Assembly (NCBI RefSeq): GCF_901212495.1
Contig: NZ_CAAKNY010000062.1
Location: forward strand, 1 to 6,203
Origin: Collinsella aerofaciens
GTDB taxonomy: Bacteria > Actinomycetota > Coriobacteriia > Coriobacteriales > Coriobacteriaceae
Reading direction: 5' to 3'
DNA length: 6,203 bases
The notes beneath the pieces are model-generated. The model saw nothing but the letters and a program-made list of their open reading frames with translations, was not told the DNA's origin and did no database searches. Within the stretch, counting starts at the first letter, position 1, and each line of letters begins with the position of its first letter. A program made the translations under genes and the position numbers. Positions 402-6,203 of the stretch are shown one piece after another.

Positions 402-800
402 CTATTCCCACTCGGTGGTTATAGTTTTGCCGTCTCGTCACTCCAGTTGCACCCAGTTTTCGGCGGCATCTCGAAGTGAGTGCCGCTGAATGACGCGACG
501 TCGCGTTTCATCGGCTTCGGGGACAAAAGCTGGGACAACTTCAAAAACCATTTTCAAACTCAGAGTATTGAGTTTTTATTTTTGTCCCAAGGGGCACGGA
601 GAGCCGCCTTTGGAGGCTCGATATCGCCGAAAAACGCCCGTTTTGAAACTCAACCGCCTTTGAGCCTGCAAACCACCAGCTTCAACAGTAAGTGAGTCGA
701 CGCGGGTGGCTTACGAGCCGTTCACAAAACCGCAGGCCACAGGTCTTTGTCAACGATAAGCAAAGTGAATAGTCTCAGGTGGCTTGCCCATGAGTTGGCG
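402..800. repeat. Dispersed repeat copy R1 (~400 bp), left of the mef-msr operon
   Basis: This stretch aligns end to end with 5155-5552 in the same orientation. The two lengths differ by about one base, and by eye roughly seven in ten positions match. Blocks identical in both include 505-530 (= 5258-5283), which contains ATCGGCTTCGGGGACAAAAG, and 770-796 (= 5522-5548), which contains CTCAGGTGGCTTGCCCATGA. Reading frames run through both copies (480-695 here), but the substitutions are not concentrated at third positions, and the - strand frames carry stops in one copy and not the other. I therefore call it non-coding. I see no transposase and no clear terminal inverted repeats. It is probably a genome-wide dispersed element; I cannot name the family. 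Confidence 0.8.
520..588. other. Nested hairpin inside R1
   Basis: The outer arms GGGACAAAA (520-528) and TTTTGTCCC (580-588) pair perfectly over 9 bp. An inner stem AAACTCA (556-562) pairs with TGAGTTT (569-575). The same two stems occur at the same spacing in R2, so the fold, not any protein, seems to be what is kept in this part of the repeat. Confidence 0.65.
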
Positions 801-832
801 TAAGCCTGTTTAGCAAAAGGCTAATCGGACAC

Positions 833-897
833 GACAGGCCGCCCGCATGGCGACGGCGTTTCCCGTGCGGGCACAAACAGCCCTGCGTGCCCTGTCG
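833..897 (-). terminator. Stem-loop complex downstream of the AAA ATPase relic
   Basis: An outer stem CGACAGG (833-839) / CCTGTCG (891-897) encloses an inner 10-bp stem, GCCCGCATGG (841-850) / CCGTGCGGGC (863-872), with one G-U pair. It lies about 30 bases beyond the stop of the - strand AAA ATPase relic, and on the - strand a TTTTG stretch follows some 15 bases later after a small TTAGC/GCTAA hairpin (810-824). A terminator role for the relic gene is plausible but the U tract is poor. Confidence 0.45.
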
Positions 898-926
898 CGC
901 GATATCCCAATGCGACGTTCAGAACC

Positions 927-1196
927 CTACCCGCCAAGCAGCCACCTCGCGAAATTCAGCACGAGCACGCCCTCCCGGGTATGGGGCTCATGCCTCGTGC
1001 GAGTGATGAGAATCTTCGGGAATGCATCCCCGATGGATAGAATCGGCGCAATCTCCCTCTCGAGCGTCGAATCGGCGCCGATATCGTCGCTCACATACAC
1101 TTTCCTTCCCGGTTTCGAAACTTGGAAGGCAGTATGCGCAAGGATGCGTCGAGGTGCGATCCCAGTCGTACCATGCCAGCAGAGATGTCGAGGCAC
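927..1196 (-). pseudogene. AAA ATPase (DUF4143 type), C-terminal remnant
   Basis: The last ~60 residues of this - strand frame match the C-terminal end of the COG1373/DUF4143 family of ATP-binding proteins. They show KVYVSDD, then LEREIAPILSIGDAFPKILIT, then EGVLVLNFARWLLGG just before the stop (927-929). In the family this is the end of the nuclease-like C-terminal domain that follows the AAA ATPase module. The full protein is about 400 residues, so the Walker motifs and nearly all of the gene are gone. Upstream of about position 1110 the translation no longer resembles the family in any of the three frames. It is a relic with an intact stop. These ATPases are common accessory genes of gut bacteria with no well-established role. 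Confidence 0.65.
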
Positions 1197-1322
1197 ATTC
1201 GTTCATGCTGCAATGCGGGCATCGGAGATGAAAAACAGCCCGTCGGGTAGTCATGGGCGTGCGGGAGCCCGCATCAGTAACCTGCCTCCTCGGTTGTCCC
1301 TTCTTTGCATGGTCGTCTACAT

Positions 1323-1620
1323 AAAGGAGGAACCAGCCATGCAGATCAGCATGCTTGCCCTTCTTGGGTCACGGACCGGGGAGGCGAGGGCCTCCGTCGG
1401 GACCGCCCCGAGCAACCGGCATATCCAAGGAATGACAAGGCTCGATCGCTGTGCTGGTCAGGATGCCGAAGCGGGCCGTCCGCCAATCGGAATGCGGGTC
1501 AGGATGCTGCAACGTGATTCCAGCTGCAGGATACGGCTCCTTTGCGGTTGCCGCAAAACCTGCTGGCAACATTCTTACTATCCGAATGATGTACGCATCC
1601 CTTGGGATCGTTTCGCCTGA
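1323..1620 (+). CDS. Orphan reading frame behind a perfect ribosome binding site
   Basis: AAAGGAGG (1323-1330) sits 8 bases before ATG 1339, an ideal Shine-Dalgarno and spacing. The frame then runs 93 codons to TGA at 1618-1620. I do not recognise the product. After the opening MQISMLALLGS it is rich in Arg, Cys and Gly and looks like random translation. Its 3' part overlaps antisense to the IS3-type relic (1580-1699), which suggests the frame is accidental beyond its first codons. The likely reading is that a real ribosome binding site and gene start survive here and that the body of the gene has been replaced. The rest of 1197-1580 holds nothing recognisable apart from a short GCGGG/CCCGC hairpin near 1260-1273. 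Confidence 0.25.
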
Positions 1621-1699
1621 CCAGGGCCATCTTCAGCGCCTCATCGGCCAGCTCGGCAGGCGCCTCTTCCACGCGTAATAGCCCTGGCGGGTCACCTAT
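1580..1699 (-). pseudogene. IS3-family transposase (DDE/rve domain) sliver
   Basis: About 40 residues on the - strand read ELADEALKMALVRRN, then GCVHHSD. This is the stretch before and including the second catalytic Asp of the IS3-family OrfB integrase core, normally continued as HHSDxGxQY. Here the similarity ends exactly after HHSD (Asp codon at 1580-1582), and the next residues (SKNVASRF) do not fit in any frame I checked. Upstream of about 1700 it also fades. Both halves of the transposase are missing, so the element is dead. It is a fossil of past insertion next to the resistance operon's promoter. Confidence 0.55.
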
Positions 1700-1762
1700 G
1701 CAACCAAAGATACAAAAGGAATCGAATGGCCAGAGAGGATTGCCCTTACCGATGCTCGATTC

Positions 1763-1792
1763 TTGACAGGCAAACTCAAGCCTCGTTAATAT
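1763..1792 (+). promoter_or_regulatory. Promoter of the mef-msr-like operon
   Basis: A perfect TTGACA -35 box (1763-1768) is followed by TAATAT (1787-1792, 4 of 6 consensus bases, 18-bp spacer) in an AT-rich patch. GTTAAT at 1785-1790 (16-bp spacer) is an alternative -10. Transcription would start near 1799, about 20 bases before the leader ribosome binding site and about 130 before the mef-like start. No operator-like inverted repeat is seen across it, consistent with control by attenuation and not by a repressor. Confidence 0.6.
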
Positions 1793-1832
1793 TACATGGT
1801 TTGCCAGACCGAATTAACAAAGGAGGGGTGTC

Positions 1833-1868
1833 GTGGTTGGTCTTTTCCGCACGTGGATGAGCGCCTAG
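1833..1868 (+). CDS. Candidate regulatory leader peptide upstream of the mef-like gene
   Basis: AAAGGAGG (1819-1826), the best ribosome binding site near the operon, lies 6 bases before GTG 1833. The frame encodes 11 residues, MVGLFRTWMSA, and stops at TAG 1866-1868. No long gene follows this ribosome binding site, so a leader is the simplest explanation. Macrolide-resistance genes (erm, mef, msr) are commonly induced by drug-dependent ribosome stalling on leaders of this size; I do not see the classic Arg-x-Arg stall motif, so the stall site is unknown. An overlapping frame (GTG 1828 or TTG 1837, ending TGA 1858-1860, ...VFSARG) is the alternative. The leader stop is in frame with the mef-like gene and lies inside the attenuator. 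Confidence 0.4.
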   Translation: MVGLFRTWMSA

Positions 1869-1901
1869 AAAGCGGCGCTGTTGTGGCGTCGCGCTGTTTT
1901 T
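1860..1901 (+). promoter_or_regulatory. Transcription attenuator: antiterminator and terminator hairpins
   Basis: Two stems compete for the same bases. Stem A pairs AGCGCC (1860-1865) with GGCGCT (1874-1879), loop 8. Stem B pairs GCGGCGC (1872-1878) with GCGTCGC (1886-1892), 7 bp with one G-U, loop 7; it is followed by GCTG and five T (1897-1901), an intrinsic terminator. An alternative register with a 2-base bulge brings stem B right up to the T run. Stem A and stem B share 1874-1878 and cannot form together. The leader stop codon falls in the loop of stem A. A ribosome held early in the leader would leave stem A free to form and so block the terminator, the logic known for mef(A)/msr(D) and erm attenuators. 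Confidence 0.6.
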
Positions 1902-1931
1902 CTGCACGCCATTTCACGATTGGACATAACC

Positions 1932-3218
1932 ATGATATTTGAAACCTCTCGGGGCAGGTCTGTTCTGCTGTGCCATTCATGGCAATTCAAGCTTTGTTTC
2001 GTATGGGGCGGGGAGCTCGTTTCGACATTGACGAGTTCGATTCTCCAAATGGGTCTTATTTGGCATCTCGCCCTCACGACAGGGTCGTCTTCTCTCCTCT
2101 CCTTAGCATCGCTGGCAGGCTTTCTGCCGATTGCTTTGTTCGGAATCCTTGCGGGCGCCGTTGTCGACAGACTGCCTTTGAAACGTGTCCTCATCGGCGC
2201 CGACCTCTTCATTGCCGCGGTGGGTGCCGCCTTGGCGATTGCCTCGTTGGCCGGCAGCTTACCTGCATGGCTAATTCTCATCGCCCTGTTTCTCCGTGCA
2301 GTTGGTACTTCGTTCTACACGCCAGCCTCCCAATCTCTCACGCCCCATCTCGCCCCGCCAGAGCATCTCGTTCGCCTATCGGGGGTGACTCAGGCGATTC
2401 AGTCCGGCGGATACATTCTTGGCGCCGCGCTTGCAGCAGTGATTTATCCCGTGGCGGGCATTACCGCTATGATTGTCCTCGACGTGCTGGGAGCGCTTTT
2501 CGCTTCTTTAGCCGTCCTCGCCGCACAGATAGACGCAGGGGGCCTCGATGAAGCCGACCGCAGCTTGTCCTTTTCCAATAAGGTTCGAGAGCTCTTCTCT
2601 GAGATTTCGGACGGCTACAAGCTGATTAGGGAGTACAGGGGGCTGTTCGCCCTTCTTTGGTGCGGGTTCGTCTTCGCTTTCGCGTTCTCTCCGCTCGCGG
2701 CATTGTTCCCAATAATGACCTTGGGGCATTTTGGCGGTAGCACGGGGGATGCCGCTTTGGTGGAAATCCTTTTTTCTGCAGGCATGCTGGCTGGGTCCGG
2801 CATTTTGGCGGCCACGGGAGGGTTCCGCAATAGGTCGTTCACCATGGTCGCCGCGATTGCCGGCTTCGGCATTGCCGCAATCGTATCCGGATCGCTCGGC
2901 CCGTCATTGTTCGCTGCTTTCCTGCCGGTGAGCTTTCTTATGGGCGCATGCTCCCCGTTGTACGCGGGAACCCAGACTGCCCTTATGCAGGAGCAGATAC
3001 CTCCTGAGTACCTAGGCCGCGTTTTCGGCCTCTACGGAACCATCATGGCGTGGGCCATGCCCATGGGCCTCGCAGCCCCCTCCGTTTTTGCGGATCTGCT
3101 TGGAGCTCCGTTATGGTTCGTCGGCTCTGGAGCGACCATGGTACTGCTTGCGATGGCTATGCTGCTTGCTCCGAGCGTCCGAAACGCGGGGAAAAGAGAT
3201 ACCGGGCAGATTCAATAG
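1932..3218 (+). CDS. Mef-like macrolide efflux MFS transporter
   Basis: This 428-residue inner-membrane protein is a proton-driven major facilitator like Mef(A)/Mef(E), which exports 14- and 15-membered macrolides. It aligns with Mef throughout: HSWQFKLCFVWGGELVS (residues 15-31) with the Mef N-terminus, SSILQM (35-40), LASLAGFLP (58-66), VLIGADLFIAA (86-96), TPASQSLTP (130-138), PEYLGRVFGL (358-367), and MAWAMPMGL (372-380). A motif-A-like loop GILAGAVVDRLPLKR is at 71-85, and a basic/acidic cytoplasmic loop (about 200-236) separates two bundles of about six membrane segments. ATG 1932 is the first ATG after the attenuator. It gives an N-terminus about 10 residues longer than Mef and has no clear Shine-Dalgarno. 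TTG 1881 and TTG 1920 are in frame, but 1881 lies inside the terminator hairpin. The gene precedes an Msr-like gene, as in mef-msr(D). Substrate is inferred from family and context. Confidence 0.88.
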   Translation: MIFETSRGRSVLLCHSWQFKLCFVWGGELVSTLTSSILQMGLIWHLALTTGSSSLLSLASLAGFLPIALFGILAGAVVDRLPLKRVLIGADLFIAAVGAALAIASLAGSLPAWLILIALFLRAVGTSFYTPASQSLTPHLAPPEHLVRLSGVTQAIQSGGYILGAALAAVIYPVAGITAMIVLDVLGALFASLAVLAAQIDAGGLDEADRSLSFSNKVRELFSEISDGYKLIREYRGLFALLWCGFVFAFAFSPLAALFPIMTLGHFGGSTGDAALVEILFSAGMLAGSGILAATGGFRNRSFTMVAAIAGFGIAAIVSGSLGPSLFAAFLPVSFLMGACSPLYAGTQTALMQEQIPPEYLGRVFGLYGTIMAWAMPMGLAAPSVFADLLGAPLWFVGSGATMVLLAMAMLLAPSVRNAGKRDTGQIQ

Positions 3219-3349
3219 CCCAAGTATTCGAAAAAAAGAGGCAGCAGCCATCGGTTCAAGCGTCAGCCTTCAAGCCCTTGCGACGACGAGGTATTGCACC
3301 GACATTCCGCATCGCGCTCCTTATTCGTCGCCAACTATCATTTTCGGAT

Positions 3350-3388
3350 TTGCCGGCTTGCGCAAGGTCAAAACGCTCGCGCCGGCAA
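3350..3388 (+). repeat. Hairpin in the mef-msr intergenic gap
   Basis: TTGCCGGC (3350-3357) and GCCGGCAA (3381-3388) are perfect complements over 8 bp around a 23-base loop that itself contains the palindrome TTGCGCAA. It lies in the 261-bp gap between the two resistance genes, upstream of a T6 run (3422-3427). No T run follows it directly, so it is more likely a processing or folding element than a terminator. The remainder of the gap, 3219-3349, shows nothing recognisable. Confidence 0.4.
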
Positions 3389-3430
3389 TTGGGCAAAGGC
3401 GAAAAATCGACGTGAGCAATCTTTTTTGGC

Positions 3431-3457
3431 ATGGCTGCGCTTCCAGTAAAACGCTAA
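3431..3457 (+). CDS. Candidate 8-residue leader before the msr-like gene
   Basis: ATG 3431 opens a frame encoding MAALPVKR and stopping at TAA 3455-3457, 22 bases before the msr-like start. Its length, position and basic C-terminal pair recall the 8-residue leaders of macrolide-inducible genes (for example MTASMRLR before mef), and msr(D) itself has a short leader. It has no convincing ribosome binding site, and Lys-Arg is not the established Arg-x-Arg stall motif. A longer overlapping frame from GTG 3412 to TAG 3492, which crosses the msr start, is an alternative coupling leader. Low confidence. Confidence 0.25.
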
Positions 3458-3479
3458 TACACAAAAGGCGGTTCAACCT

Positions 3480-4949
3480 ATGGAACTCATAGTCAAAGCT
3501 AAAGACATCTTTTTGGAATATGCCGGCCGCGATATCCTAGATATCGAAGAGTTGGAAATCTACTCCTACGATCGCATCGGCTTGGTGGGAGACAATGGCG
3601 CAGGCAAAACCAGCCTGCTTAAAATTCTGAGCGGCAATCTTACCATTGCGGACGCCGACGTCAGGCGCTTCGGCAGCATTGCCCTCATCGGCCAACTCGA
3701 TGAACTCGACCTTGATGCGGCTCAGGACAGTGGTGAGATGCTCTCCCGTCTCAACGTCGCCGGAGTGGCGCAGGAGACGATGAGCGGCGGGGAGGAAACA
3801 CGCGCCAAGATTGCCTCTGCACTCTCCCAGCATGCAAGCGCGATCTTCGCCGACGAGCCTACGAGCCACCTCGACCAAGACGGCATCCGCCTTCTCGTCG
3901 GACAACTCAAGGCATTTGATGGGGCTCTGCTCATCGTGAGCCATGACCGTCATTTTCTCGACCAGGTGGTAGACAAGATCTGGGAGCTCAAAGACGGCGG
4001 TATTTCCGAATTCTGGGGTGACTACTCCGACTATCTGCGACAGAAAGAAGAAGAGCGCAAAGCTCAGGCGACTCGATACGAAGAGGCGATGCGCGAGCGC
4101 GATCGCCTCGAAGCCGCCATCGAAAAACAACGGAAAAAAGCACGGCAGGTCGACGCCAAGCGGAAGGCTGCGAAAAAAAGCAACGAGTATGCAGGTCGAT
4201 TGGGGCATCAGAAAGCAACCGGCACCAAACAGAAGAGGATGTACCAGGCGGCTAAGGACATGGAGAAGCGCCTCGAAGCGCTCGAAGGGATTGAGGCCCC
4301 AGATAGCATTCGCGCCGTGCGGTTCCGCCAGAGCAAGGCCCTGGAACTGCATAGTAAATTTCCCATCTCGGCAGACGATTTCAGCTTGAGCTTCGGCAAC
4401 TGCATGCTCTATGACCACGCGAAATTCGAGATACCGCTCGGTGCCAAAGTGGCCATCACCGGTGGCAACGGTACAGGAAAGACCAGCCTGCTGAAGGCAA
4501 TCGCTCGACGCGCCGACGGTATCAACATCTCTCCCAAGGCAGAGATCGGTTACTTCGAGCAAACAGGCTACAAGTTCGACGCCCGTCAGTCTGCGATCTC
4601 GTTCATGCAGGATGGTTGCGAGTACAGCATGACCGAAATTCGAGGCATCCTCGCCTCTATGGGAATCGGACCGCGCGACCTGACAAAGGACGTTGGCGTT
4701 CTCTCGGGAGGCGAAGTCATCAAGCTGCTACTCGCGAAGATGCTGCTGGGCAGATACAACATCTTGCTCATGGACGAGCCTGGAAATTACCTGGACATCA
4801 AGAGCGCCGAAGCCCTCGAGCAGATGATGAGCGCCTATGCCGGAACGATAGTGTTCGTCTCCCACGATAAGAGGCTGGTCGAGAACGTCGCAGACATTGT
4901 CTACGAAATAAAGGACACCAAGCTAGTCAAAATCTTTCAGCGCGAATAG
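3480..4949 (+). CDS. Msr(D)-like ABC-F ribosomal protection ATPase
   Basis: The protein has 489 residues, close to Msr(D) (487), and the same start (MEL-I-KAKDI). It is cytoplasmic, has no membrane segments, and carries two ATP-binding cassettes. Domain 1: Walker A GDNGAGKT (37-44), signature MSGGEE (101-106), Walker B with ADEPTSHLD (124-132, catalytic Glu126), His switch VSHD (153-156). A charged helical linker (about 182-265, [11 protein letters not shown] then a Lys-rich stretch and GRLGHQK) forms the arm that ABC-F proteins insert into the ribosomal E site. Domain 2: Walker A GGNGTGKT (328-335), signature LSGGE (408-412), Walker [10 protein letters not shown] (431-439, Glu433), SHD (461-463). 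Msr-type proteins dislodge macrolides and streptogramin B from the ribosome. AAGGCGG (3465-3471), 8 bases before ATG, supports the start. It probably shares the mef-like promoter. Drug range is inferred. Confidence 0.92.
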
Positions 4950-4978
4950 CCCTAAATGAGCAAGAAATAATCCCCGAA

Positions 4979-5065
4979 CGGAGACAAGGGAGTAAAACGG
5001 CAAAGAAAGAGCCTCCGTCCCAACGCAGGGAACGGAGGCTCTTTAATCGCTTTTACTCATCTCCG
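4979..5065 (+). terminator. Operon terminator inside a nested palindrome
   Basis: The core is a perfect 13-bp stem, AAAGAGCCTCCGT (5006-5018) with ACGGAGGCTCTTT (5032-5044), extended inward by CCC/GGG across a bulged A. A-rich on one side and T-rich on the other, it could terminate in both directions. Around it are two more matched arms: GAGTAAAA (4990-4997) / TTTTACTC (5051-5058) and CGGAG (4979-4983) / CTCCG (5061-5065). It begins 30 bases after the msr-like stop and ends the operon. The outer arms go beyond what a terminator needs. Confidence 0.85.
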
Positions 5066-5154
5066 TCGCTGGTGGCTTTGTCATGACTCTCGTACGAAAC
5101 GAAACTCAGCGGCACAGTGCGGCACTCAAAATCGCAGGTCAGAACCCTATCGGC

Positions 5155-5552
5155 CTACTCCCACTCGATGGCTTCAGTTTTACTGTCCCGACATTCCAGT
5201 TGTCCTCAGTTTTCGATGCCGTCTCAAACCGAGTGCCGCCAAGTAACACTATGTCGTGTTTCATCGGCTTCGGGGACAAAAGCCGGGGCAATCTCAAAAA
5301 CTCATTCCAAACTCGGGGCTTTGAGTTTTCGTTTTTGTCCCAAAGGGCACGGCGGACAGCCTTTAGAGGTTCGATATCGACGAAAACGCCCGCTTTGAAA
5401 CTCAAGTGCCTTTTCGTGTGCGAGCCGCCAGCTGCAATAGGAAGTGAATCAACGCAGGCGCCTTTCAAGCAGTTTGCAAAACTGCAGGTTGCAGGCCTTC
5501 ATTGCTAGTAGGGGAAATGAGTAGTCTCAGGTGGCTTGCCCATGAGTTAGCG
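5155..5552. repeat. Dispersed repeat copy R2 (~400 bp), right of the mef-msr operon
   Basis: This is the direct-orientation partner of 402-800. Both open with a CTAxTCCCACTCG sequence and both end in CCCATGAGTT followed by GCG within a few bases. The divergence (about three in ten positions by eye) shows this is not a recent duplication; each copy has aged separately. An open frame runs through it (5083-5508, + strand) but is probably fortuitous: the same frame in R1 differs by non-synonymous changes and falls out of register after about two thirds. The two copies bracket about 4.35 kb that contains the resistance operon. Bases 5066-5154, between the terminator and R2, show nothing recognisable. 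Confidence 0.8.
5273..5341. other. Nested hairpin inside R2
   Basis: GGGACAAAA (5273-5281) pairs with TTTTGTCCC (5333-5341), and the inner AAACTCG (5309-5315) pairs with TTGAGTTT (5322-5328 for the seven paired bases). Geometry is the same as at 520-588 in R1: the outer span is 69 bases in both. At the inner-stem closing pair R1 has A-T and R2 has G-T, which keeps pairing in RNA. Confidence 0.65.
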
Positions 5553-5857: not shown

Positions 5858-6203
5858 TTACAGACCGTGCTTACCGAGAGCGGCCATGCGCTCATTGATG
5901 GTGGCGCGGTATGCCGCAGCCTTCTGCTCGTCGGGCTCGCTCTGGGGGCACAGAGTGGCCAGGATGGCGCGAATGGAGTGCTTGCGGTTCTCGGCCTCGA
6001 CCCAGCACAGGGAGCGCTCGGGATCGTCCATGACCTCGTCGACGACTTCCTCGCCACGGTTGGCGGGCAGGCAGTGCATGAACATGCTGTTCGGACCGGC
6101 AACGTTCATCATATCCCAGGTCACCTGGTACTTCGGATAGAACACATCCATGTAGCTGGAGCTGGAGACTTCACCTTGATTATCAACTTTATCCGAACAC
6201 CTC
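5858..6203 (-). CDS. Putrescine carbamoyltransferase, C-terminal part (open at window edge)
   Basis: From ATG 6151 the frame gives 97 residues matching the C-terminal third of transcarbamylases: FYPKYQVTWDMM, then MFMHCLPANRGEE with the HCLP substrate-binding motif, then AENRKHSIRAIL. FYPKYQV and the spacing favour putrescine carbamoyltransferase (ptcA, carbamoyl-putrescine to putrescine and carbamoyl phosphate in the agmatine deiminase pathway) over ornithine carbamoyltransferase. A helical tail ends at TAA 5858-5860. The frame stays open to the edge, but its 17 upstream residues (RCSDKVDNQGEVSSSSY) do not resemble the family, where WYGLYxA...EEER is expected. This is therefore probably a broken gene and not merely a clipped one. 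That expected segment is found downstream at 5691-5820. Confidence 0.72.
   Translation of the reverse strand, partial: RCSDKVDNQGEVSSSSYMDVFYPKYQVTWDMMNVAGPNSMFMHCLPANRGEEVVDEVMDDPERSLCWVEAENRKHSIRAILATLCPQSEPDEQKAAAYRATINERMAALGKHGL

What the first reader, a model, noticed from the sequence alone, without database searches (positions are those of the whole stretch)
1819..1901. Complete-looking leader-peptide attenuator ahead of the mef-like gene
A strong ribosome binding site with no gene behind it, an 11-codon frame, and two hairpins sharing bases 1874-1878, the second ending in GCTGTTTTT, form a self-consistent switch. The leader stop sits in the loop of the antiterminator. Known mef(A)/msr(D) control is transcriptional attenuation, but this leader sequence (MVGLFRTWMSA) differs from MTASMRLR, so it may represent a new stall peptide.
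Basis: partly seen in the sequence, partly recalled or inferred. Interest (0 to 1): 0.8.

Follow-up and report, generated by a model that had tools for sequence, protein, structure and literature searches.

The report
Macrolide-sensing leader gating a mobile pump
A mobile macrolide-efflux-type gene shared by bacteria of several genera carries an 11-codon upstream reading frame that likely stalls drug-bound ribosomes, which would free the start of the pump gene that the messenger RNA is otherwise predicted to keep folded shut.

Summary
They travel with a mobile mef-like/Msr-like cassette of Coriobacteriia; nine haplotypes all encode the same peptide. The leader is best read as a variant of the ErmD/MefE class: R6-T7-W8 stands in the register of R6-x7-R8 of MTASMRLR, and +X(W) is a published erythromycin arrest motif. 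A separate Collinsella mef lineage has its own R6-x-W8 leader (MLASMRIWL). The proposed antitermination does not fit a stall there, because that ribosome covers 1860-1865. Folding points to translational control instead: leader and mef start can pair over 27 bp in four helices. Opening the mef start costs 15.9 kcal/mol in free RNA, 6.1 with a ribosome at codon 7, and 13.8 with one at the stop; none of 500 shuffles and none of 281 real gene starts shows such relief at codon 7. In the same calculation ermC behaves alike. No experiment was run. There is no covariation, the contrast with the stop shrinks for some RNA ends and footprints, and a possible terminator in the ON state is unresolved.

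The parts
1763..1792 (+). sigma-70-type promoter-like site TTGACA-18-TAATAT; predicted RNA start near 1799
   Evidence: 10 of 12 matches; start site inferred, not mapped
1819..1828 (+). ribosome binding site of the leader (AAAGGAGGGG)
   Evidence: sequence
1833..1868 (+). leader frame GTG...TAG, MVGLFRTWMSA
   Evidence: same peptide in 9 of 9 haplotypes
1848..1856 (+). codons 6-8, Arg-Thr-Trp: predicted erythromycin arrest motif +X(W), Thr codon in the P site
   Evidence: sequence; motif class from PMC6238534 (passages)
   Evidence: -10.0 kcal/mol; all 6 pairs invariant in 9 haplotypes
1872..1901 (+). competing hairpin 1872-1879:1885-1892 followed by GCTGTTTTT, terminator-like
   Evidence: U-tract shortened in 3 of 9 haplotypes
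1883..1912 (+). alternative hairpin 1883-1889:1906-1912 (G-U to A-U in 3 of 9 haplotypes)
1823..1950 (+). predicted long-range closure of the mef start by the leader: 1823-1829:1944-1950, 1830-1839:1927-1936, 1846-1849:1921-1924, 1852-1857:1913-1918
1932..3218 (+). mef-like MFS pump, 428 aa, 42-44% identical to annotated Mef(A)
3480..4949 (+). Msr-type ABC-F ribosome protection protein, 489 aa, best PDB match 5zlu chain EE (deposited as Macrolide efflux protein)

Best explanation
The 1799-1932 leader is likely a macrolide-sensing translational attenuator: the leader RNA is predicted to pair with the mef ribosome binding site and start codon and hold them closed, and a macrolide-bound ribosome that likely stalls at Arg6-Thr7-(Trp8) would open them. 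In detail: RNA made from the promoter at 1763 carries a strong SD, so the first ribosome loads on the leader as it emerges (inferred). Without drug it reads to TAG 1866, leaves, and the leader strand (1823-1857) closes on the mef start (1913-1950), which has only a weak SD (predicted). With a 14- or 15-membered macrolide the ribosome likely arrests with Thr7 in the P site and Trp8 in the A site and covers about 1836-1866. This removes the leader strand from the duplex and lowers the cost of opening the mef start from 15.9 to 6.1 kcal/mol (computed). Mef would then be translated, and the Msr-like ABC-F gene, if on the same RNA, would follow. The terminator-like hairpin 1872-1901 may add a transcriptional layer, but a stall at codon 7 does not remove it.
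For: Codon scan: opening cost 15.9 (no ribosome), 3.6-7.4 (codons 1-7), 10.3 (codon 8), 11.2 (codon 9), 14.2 (codon 10), 13.8 (codon 11, at the stop). 500 shuffles: closure 7.2 +/- 2.1, none as high; relief at codon 7 none as high; best relief at any codon 12.3 against a shuffle maximum of 9.9; in the first 200 shuffles 1 matched the closure and 0 the relief. 281 real gene starts from L017-L066: none has the codon-7 relief. Five further haplotypes (6 of 9 tested with the window) give 14.4-16.3 free, 5.1-6.5 at codon 7, 12.8-14.9 at the stop. Positive control: pE194 ermC falls from 11.2 to 2.6 at codon 9 (its stall codon, recalled) and is 9.4 at the last codon; relief range codons 8-16. Other control: phi1207.3 mef(A), of a class controlled by transcription, 7.0 free, 4.5 at codon 7, 2.6 at best. 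Arrest motif: +X(W) is among the motifs enriched by erythromycin in vitro (PMC6238534, passages); ErmDL stalls at Arg6-Leu7-(Arg8), and for erythromycin position 8 tolerates almost any residue but Cys (PMC8298421, passages and section 8). A second Coriobacteriia mef lineage has MLASMRIWL (R6-I7-W8) in 6 of 7 loci. Cargo: Mef-like and Msr-type genes.
Against: No expression data. The predicted ON state contains the terminator-like hairpin (0.89-0.95 in longer RNA), which would hurt expression if it terminates well. The contrast with the stop depends on assumptions: with RNA ends at 1945, 2020 and 2060 the cost at the stop is 8.8, 9.2 and 9.2 against 4.9, 7.3 and 7.5 at codon 7; with the footprint 12 upstream/16 downstream the loss of relief already begins at codon 7 (9.5), and with the widest start region almost no contrast is left there (15.1 against 16.5). 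Among 281 real gene starts 119 are as closed, and 2 reach the stop-minus-codon-7 swing, though none both measures. For L092, 4 of 200 shuffles match the closure, 0 the relief. No covariation: 38 of 40 pairs have no mismatch and none changes on both sides; haplotype L011 breaks two pairs. The leader frame is not better conserved than mef in the most distant copy: 1 of 36 against 51 of 1287. Leu4 does not meet the Ser/Ala/Gly need at position 4 of ErmDL. The closed fold also pairs the leader's own SD. The MLASMRIWL lineage shows no such relief in 4 of 4 tested (L063 5.3 free, 5.9 stalled), so this wiring is not shared with it.
Confidence: 0.52

Rival explanations
1. Transcriptional attenuation as the first reader and the streptococcal mef literature suggest: drug stalling lets 1860-1865 pair with 1874-1879, which prevents the terminator 1872-1901, so RNA polymerase reads on into mef.
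For: Both hairpins are present and share 1874-1879. A stall at codon 4 gives the antiterminator 0.97-0.98 pairing once RNA to 1932 or beyond is made. mef(E)/mel is controlled this way in pneumococcus (PMC4335068: abstract, passages, sections 19 and 23).
Against: A stall at the +X(W) site masks 1860-1865 and leaves the terminator-like hairpin intact. At the decision point (RNA to 1901) a stall at codon 4 gives 0.40 against 0.34. The U-tract is only 5 U, 4 nt from the stem, and is shortened in 3 of 9 haplotypes.
Confidence: 0.23
2. Stalling near the stop codon, as in MsrDL, physically blocks the terminator's 5' arm.
For: A ribosome at codons 10-11 reduces the remaining stem from about -14 to about -3 kcal/mol. 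MsrDL works by blocked termination at its stop codon (PMC10314930, passages).
Against: The peptide does not resemble MYLIFM, and I recall no erythromycin motif that ends in M-S-A-stop. At the stop the mef start is mostly closed (13.8; 8.8-9.2 with some RNA ends).
Confidence: 0.08
3. The leader is translated but unregulated; the pairing with mef is incidental.
For: No covariation; leader conservation no better than mef; local fold not above shuffles; an SD-led leader with the motif is missing in 49 of 49 loci of the distant group.
Against: Relief at codon 7 is unmatched in 500 shuffles and 281 genes; strong SD; shared Arg6-x-Trp8 register with a second mef lineage.
Confidence: 0.17

Closest known systems
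erm(C) translational attenuator (pE194, ErmCL)
   Same: Leader stop 59 (ermC) and 63 nt (window) before the gene; gene start closed in free RNA, opened by a ribosome at the stall codon, mostly closed again by one at the stop
   Different: Different peptide and gene; here the leader codons and SD themselves pair with the gene start, and a terminator-like hairpin lies between
ErmDL / MefEL / MsrAL leaders with the +X(+) motif (MTHSMRLR, MTASMRLR)
   Same: Short leader ahead of macrolide resistance genes, Arg at codon 6 and the A-site residue of the motif at codon 8
   Different: Trp instead of Arg/Lys at codon 8; Gly3-Leu4-Phe5 instead of Ala/His3-Ser4-Met5; 11 codons
mef(E)/mel transcriptional attenuator
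   Same: Same gene pair type and a leader peptide with a downstream terminator-like hairpin
   Different: About 133-nt predicted leader instead of 327 nt; the hairpin switch does not fit a stall at codon 7; mef start closed by the leader
MLASMRIWL leader of Collinsella chromosomal mef (L062-L066, L071)
   Same: Same class of bacteria, Arg6-x-Trp8, mef-like gene 63-65 nt after the leader stop in the 4 tested
   Different: Mef only 48-50% identical, no Msr-type gene on the 10-11 kb held for these loci, mef start not closed by the leader

Membership tests
ermC-type translational attenuator | Gene start closed in free RNA and opened by a ribosome at the stall codon, not by one at the stop | tested here: met
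   15.9 / 6.1 / 13.8 kcal/mol; 0 of 500 shuffles; computed only, and the contrast with the stop shrinks to about 2 kcal/mol with RNA ends at 2020 and 2060
ermC-type translational attenuator | Drug-induced increase of translation, not of RNA | not testable with these tools
   needs reporter fusions
Macrolide leader peptide, ErmD/MefE class | Arg/Lys-x-Arg/Lys at codons 6-8 | tested here: not met
   Arg6-Thr7-Trp8: first residue met, third is Trp; filed as a +X(W) variant, not as a member
Macrolide leader peptide, ErmD/MefE class | Drug-dependent ribosome arrest in the leader | not testable with these tools
   toeprinting needed; +X(W) is a reported erythromycin motif
mef(E)/mel transcriptional attenuator | Intrinsic terminator between leader and mef | tested here: inconclusive
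   GC-rich hairpin with UUUUU 4 nt away; U-tract shortened in 3 of 9 haplotypes
mef(E)/mel transcriptional attenuator | Stalled ribosome favours an antiterminator | tested here: not met
   at codon 7 antiterminator 0.00; would be met in longer RNA for a stall at about codon 4
Mef(A) (NCBIfam NF000245) | score above curated cut-off 675 | tested here: not met
   330 bits; 42-44% identity to annotated Mef(A)
Msr family ABC-F (NCBIfam NF000168) | score above curated cut-off 680 | tested here: not met
   672.3 bits, just below; general ribosomal protection ABC-F model met (490.6 against 380)

The most novel reading that the evidence does not exclude
Coriobacteriia have a class of Arg6-x-Trp8 leader peptides that sense cladinose macrolides but not ketolides, and in the mobile mef/msr cassette the leader's own start site base-pairs with the pump's start site, so that each RNA makes a single, self-locking decision: a drug-stalled first ribosome keeps it open, a finished one lets it snap shut and silences both frames.
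Probability: 0.33. Interest if true: 0.65.

Novelty: new variant of a known kind. Interest (0 to 1): 0.5.

Why it matters
If true, the mef/msr gene pair is governed by different logic in streptococci (transcription) and in Coriobacteriia (translation), and +X(W), known to me only as an in vitro erythromycin motif, would have natural regulatory examples in two mef lineages. It predicts that the cassette answers erythromycin but not, or less, ketolides, because Trp at position 8 of ErmDL relieves telithromycin arrest (PMC8298421, passages). The cassette sits in several genera, so a resistance assay without drug induction could miss it.

Tried and rejected
Stem stability as evidence: rejected, local fold z 0.19. 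Covariation: none. Conservation of the leader beyond mef: not shown. A shared structural plan with the MLASMRIWL lineage: by eye I saw a hairpin right after its stop and an alternative pairing before its mef start, but the opening-energy calculation gave no comparable relief in the 4 loci tested (L062, L063, L064, L066) and shuffles matched it freely (L063, L066), so I do not use it. Leader of L067 (the same sequence as L116, under which name searches list it), possibly MPIPMLAF with an uncertain start codon: its mef start is also strongly closed (20.9; 0 of 200 shuffles) with relief 4.5 (2 of 200); suggestive only. Wider search for M-x-x-S-M-R-x-W-type leaders in 396 genomes of the phylum: 5 genomes hit, 2 with the known Collinsella leaders, 3 starting frames of 30-78 codons that overlap other long frames and read as chance. 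Rfam at E up to 1: no family on the leader. DNA similar to 1700-4960 at megablast level in plasmids and phages: none. Literature, all in the held library: no paper holds MVGLFRTWMSA or MLASMRIWL; Coriobacteriia + macrolide resistance + leader peptide gave no paper; Collinsella + macrolide efflux + mobile gave one review, seen only as a listing; some searches were seen as listings except for the four papers cited. The one search count of 16 of 17 close loci is an artefact of a wrong start for L077; one search gives 17 of 17. The group of 49 includes one 30-residue fragment (L075, 77%) and 2 loci with under 150 nt upstream.

Full report
What is in the window. The window looks like Coriobacteriia DNA: its mef-like gene (1932-3218) is 94-100% identical at 16 of the 76 loci returned, from Collinsella, Enorma, Slackia, Olsenella, Atopobium, Olegusella, Thermophilibacter, Adlercreutzia, unnamed Coriobacteriales and Eggerthellaceae and one Actinomyces, and at one IMG/VR contig. 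No whole genome is held for the window itself. It is followed by an Msr-type ABC-F gene (3480-4949) that scores 672.3 bits against the Msr model's cut-off of 680 and matches the solved chain 5zlu_EE over its whole length. The Mef-like protein is 42-44% identical to annotated Mef(A) and stays below the Mef(A) model's cut-off. Among 17 close loci the ABC-F gene is present in 15; L006 and L008 share only 1698-3331 and lack it on the DNA held. Alignment to the relatives shows a mobile core from 1698 to about 4960-4990, and in nine loci a longer unit from about 402 to 5169. In class samples, 14 of 392 genomes had the ABC-F gene at E 1e-80, and 18 of 396 had a match to the leader DNA, 15 of them long matches of at least 86% identity and 3 only short chance matches.

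The observation. All elements described are present: promoter-like TTGACA-18-TAATAT, SD AAAGGAGGGG, GTG MVGLFRTWMSA TAG, a 6-bp hairpin of -10.0 kcal/mol with the stop codon in its loop, and a competing hairpin of -14.0 kcal/mol followed by GCTGTTTTT. The local fold is not more stable than shuffled sequence. 33 sequence entries (window included, some the same genome twice) give 9 haplotypes; all encode the same peptide, and three use TAA instead of TAG and have a shorter U-tract. In the most distant copy, L092, the stretch 1698-1818 differs at 27 of 121 positions, the leader frame at 1 of 36 and mef at 51 of 1287; this shows retention, not exceptional constraint.

The peptide. Known mef/msr/ermD-type leaders carry Arg/Lys-x-Arg/Lys at codons 6-8 (Chancey 2015, PMC4335068, Table 3, passages). 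The window's leader has Arg6-Thr7-Trp8. Inverse toeprinting reports +X(W), with Trp in the A site, among the motifs enriched by erythromycin (PMC6238534, passages). In ErmDL, erythromycin arrest tolerates almost any residue at position 8, whereas Trp there relieves telithromycin arrest (PMC8298421, passages and section 8). A separate case in the same class of bacteria: a Collinsella mef lineage 48-50% identical to the window's has a leader MLASMRIWL, again Arg6-x-Trp8, in 6 of 7 loci, and keeps it in loci whose Mef proteins are 73% identical. Of 49 loci in the distant group (53-66% identical, one 77% fragment) none has an SD-led leader with the motif, and none of 4 at 25-45%. So the leader is a +X(W) variant of the ErmD/MefE class by register. 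Against this, its residue 4 (Leu) does not match the ErmDL requirement.

The switch. A ribosome with codon 7 in the P site ends at about 1865/1866. I therefore asked what a stalled ribosome would change downstream. In the free RNA the leader strand pairs with the mef start: 1823-1829:1944-1950, 1830-1839:1927-1936 (which contains the mef ATG), 1846-1849:1921-1924 (the weak SD) and 1852-1857:1913-1918. The cost of opening -16..+12 of mef is 15.9 kcal/mol; with a ribosome at codons 1-7 it is 3.6-7.4, at codon 8 10.3, at codon 9 11.2, at codon 10 14.2, at the stop 13.8. Other choices shift the picture: depending on the footprint the relief ends between codon 6 and codon 9; with RNA ends at 1945, 2020 or 2060 the cost at the stop falls to 8.8-9.2 against 4.9-7.5 at codon 7; with the widest start region and the footprint shortest upstream the contrast at codon 7 almost vanishes (15.1 against 16.5). 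Closure of free RNA and relief at codons 3-6 hold in every setting of the codon scan. In 500 shuffles of the leader the closure is 7.2 +/- 2.1 and none reaches the window's closure, codon-7 relief or stop-minus-codon-7 swing; an earlier set of 200 had 1 for closure and 0 for relief. In 281 real gene starts none reaches the relief, 119 are as closed, and 2 reach the swing. Five further haplotypes behave alike.

Calibration. The same calculation on pE194 ermC, recalled as the textbook translational attenuator, gives 11.2 free, 2.6 at codon 9 (its stall codon, recalled) and 9.4 at the last codon; a longer 5' end gives 10.7, 2.9 and 10.6 (RNA start assumed). On phi1207.3 mef(A), of the class shown to be controlled by transcription, it gives 7.0 free, 4.5 at codon 7 and 2.6 at best. 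The MLASMRIWL lineage gives no such relief. So the window's leader behaves like ermC in this test and unlike the other two.

What stays open. Every step of function is inferred: start site, drug arrest, and the effect on translation. The predicted ON state keeps the terminator-like hairpin, which is a real tension unless it terminates poorly; a U-tract 4 nt from the stem and its shortening in 3 of 9 haplotypes point that way but do not prove it. The pairs are almost invariant, so there is no covariation. A mixed transcriptional and translational mechanism is possible.

Verdict. New variant of a known kind; interest 0.5.

Noticed in passing
window 1218-1317: An azaaromatic (yjdF) riboswitch aptamer, 48.4 bits against a cut-off of 45, lies in the left part of the mobile unit; also in L005 and L092. 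The frame after it (1339-1620) has no Pfam match at E 0.1.
   Followed up: partly
window 402-800 and 5155-5552: About 399 bp direct repeats (about 77% identical) flank the 4.77 kb unit, whose end near 5169 is shared by several relatives; possibly its target or attachment sequence.
   Followed up: partly
L062-L066, L071, upstream of mef: Leader MLASMRIWL with a GUGA-loop hairpin right after the stop, and a CTCACG near the predicted RNA start that is complementary to the hairpin's CGTGAG; kept while the surrounding 5' region has diverged (by eye).
   Followed up: partly
L067 / L116, upstream of mef: A different leader (possibly MPIPMLAF, with an XP(X) motif) followed by a terminator-like CGGTCGC-TCA-GCGACCGCCTGTTTTTG; its mef start is predicted to be closed by the leader.
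   Followed up: partly
L006 and L008: The leader and mef occur without the ABC-F gene: similarity to the window ends at 3331 (the L006 contig ends soon after).
   Followed up: partly
window 5858-6151, minus strand: C-terminal part of a putrescine/ornithine carbamoyltransferase gene beside the unit.
   Followed up: no
L012: The cassette in a record named Actinomyces sp. with a 99.4% identical leader region: transfer outside Coriobacteriia, if the record is sound.
   Followed up: no
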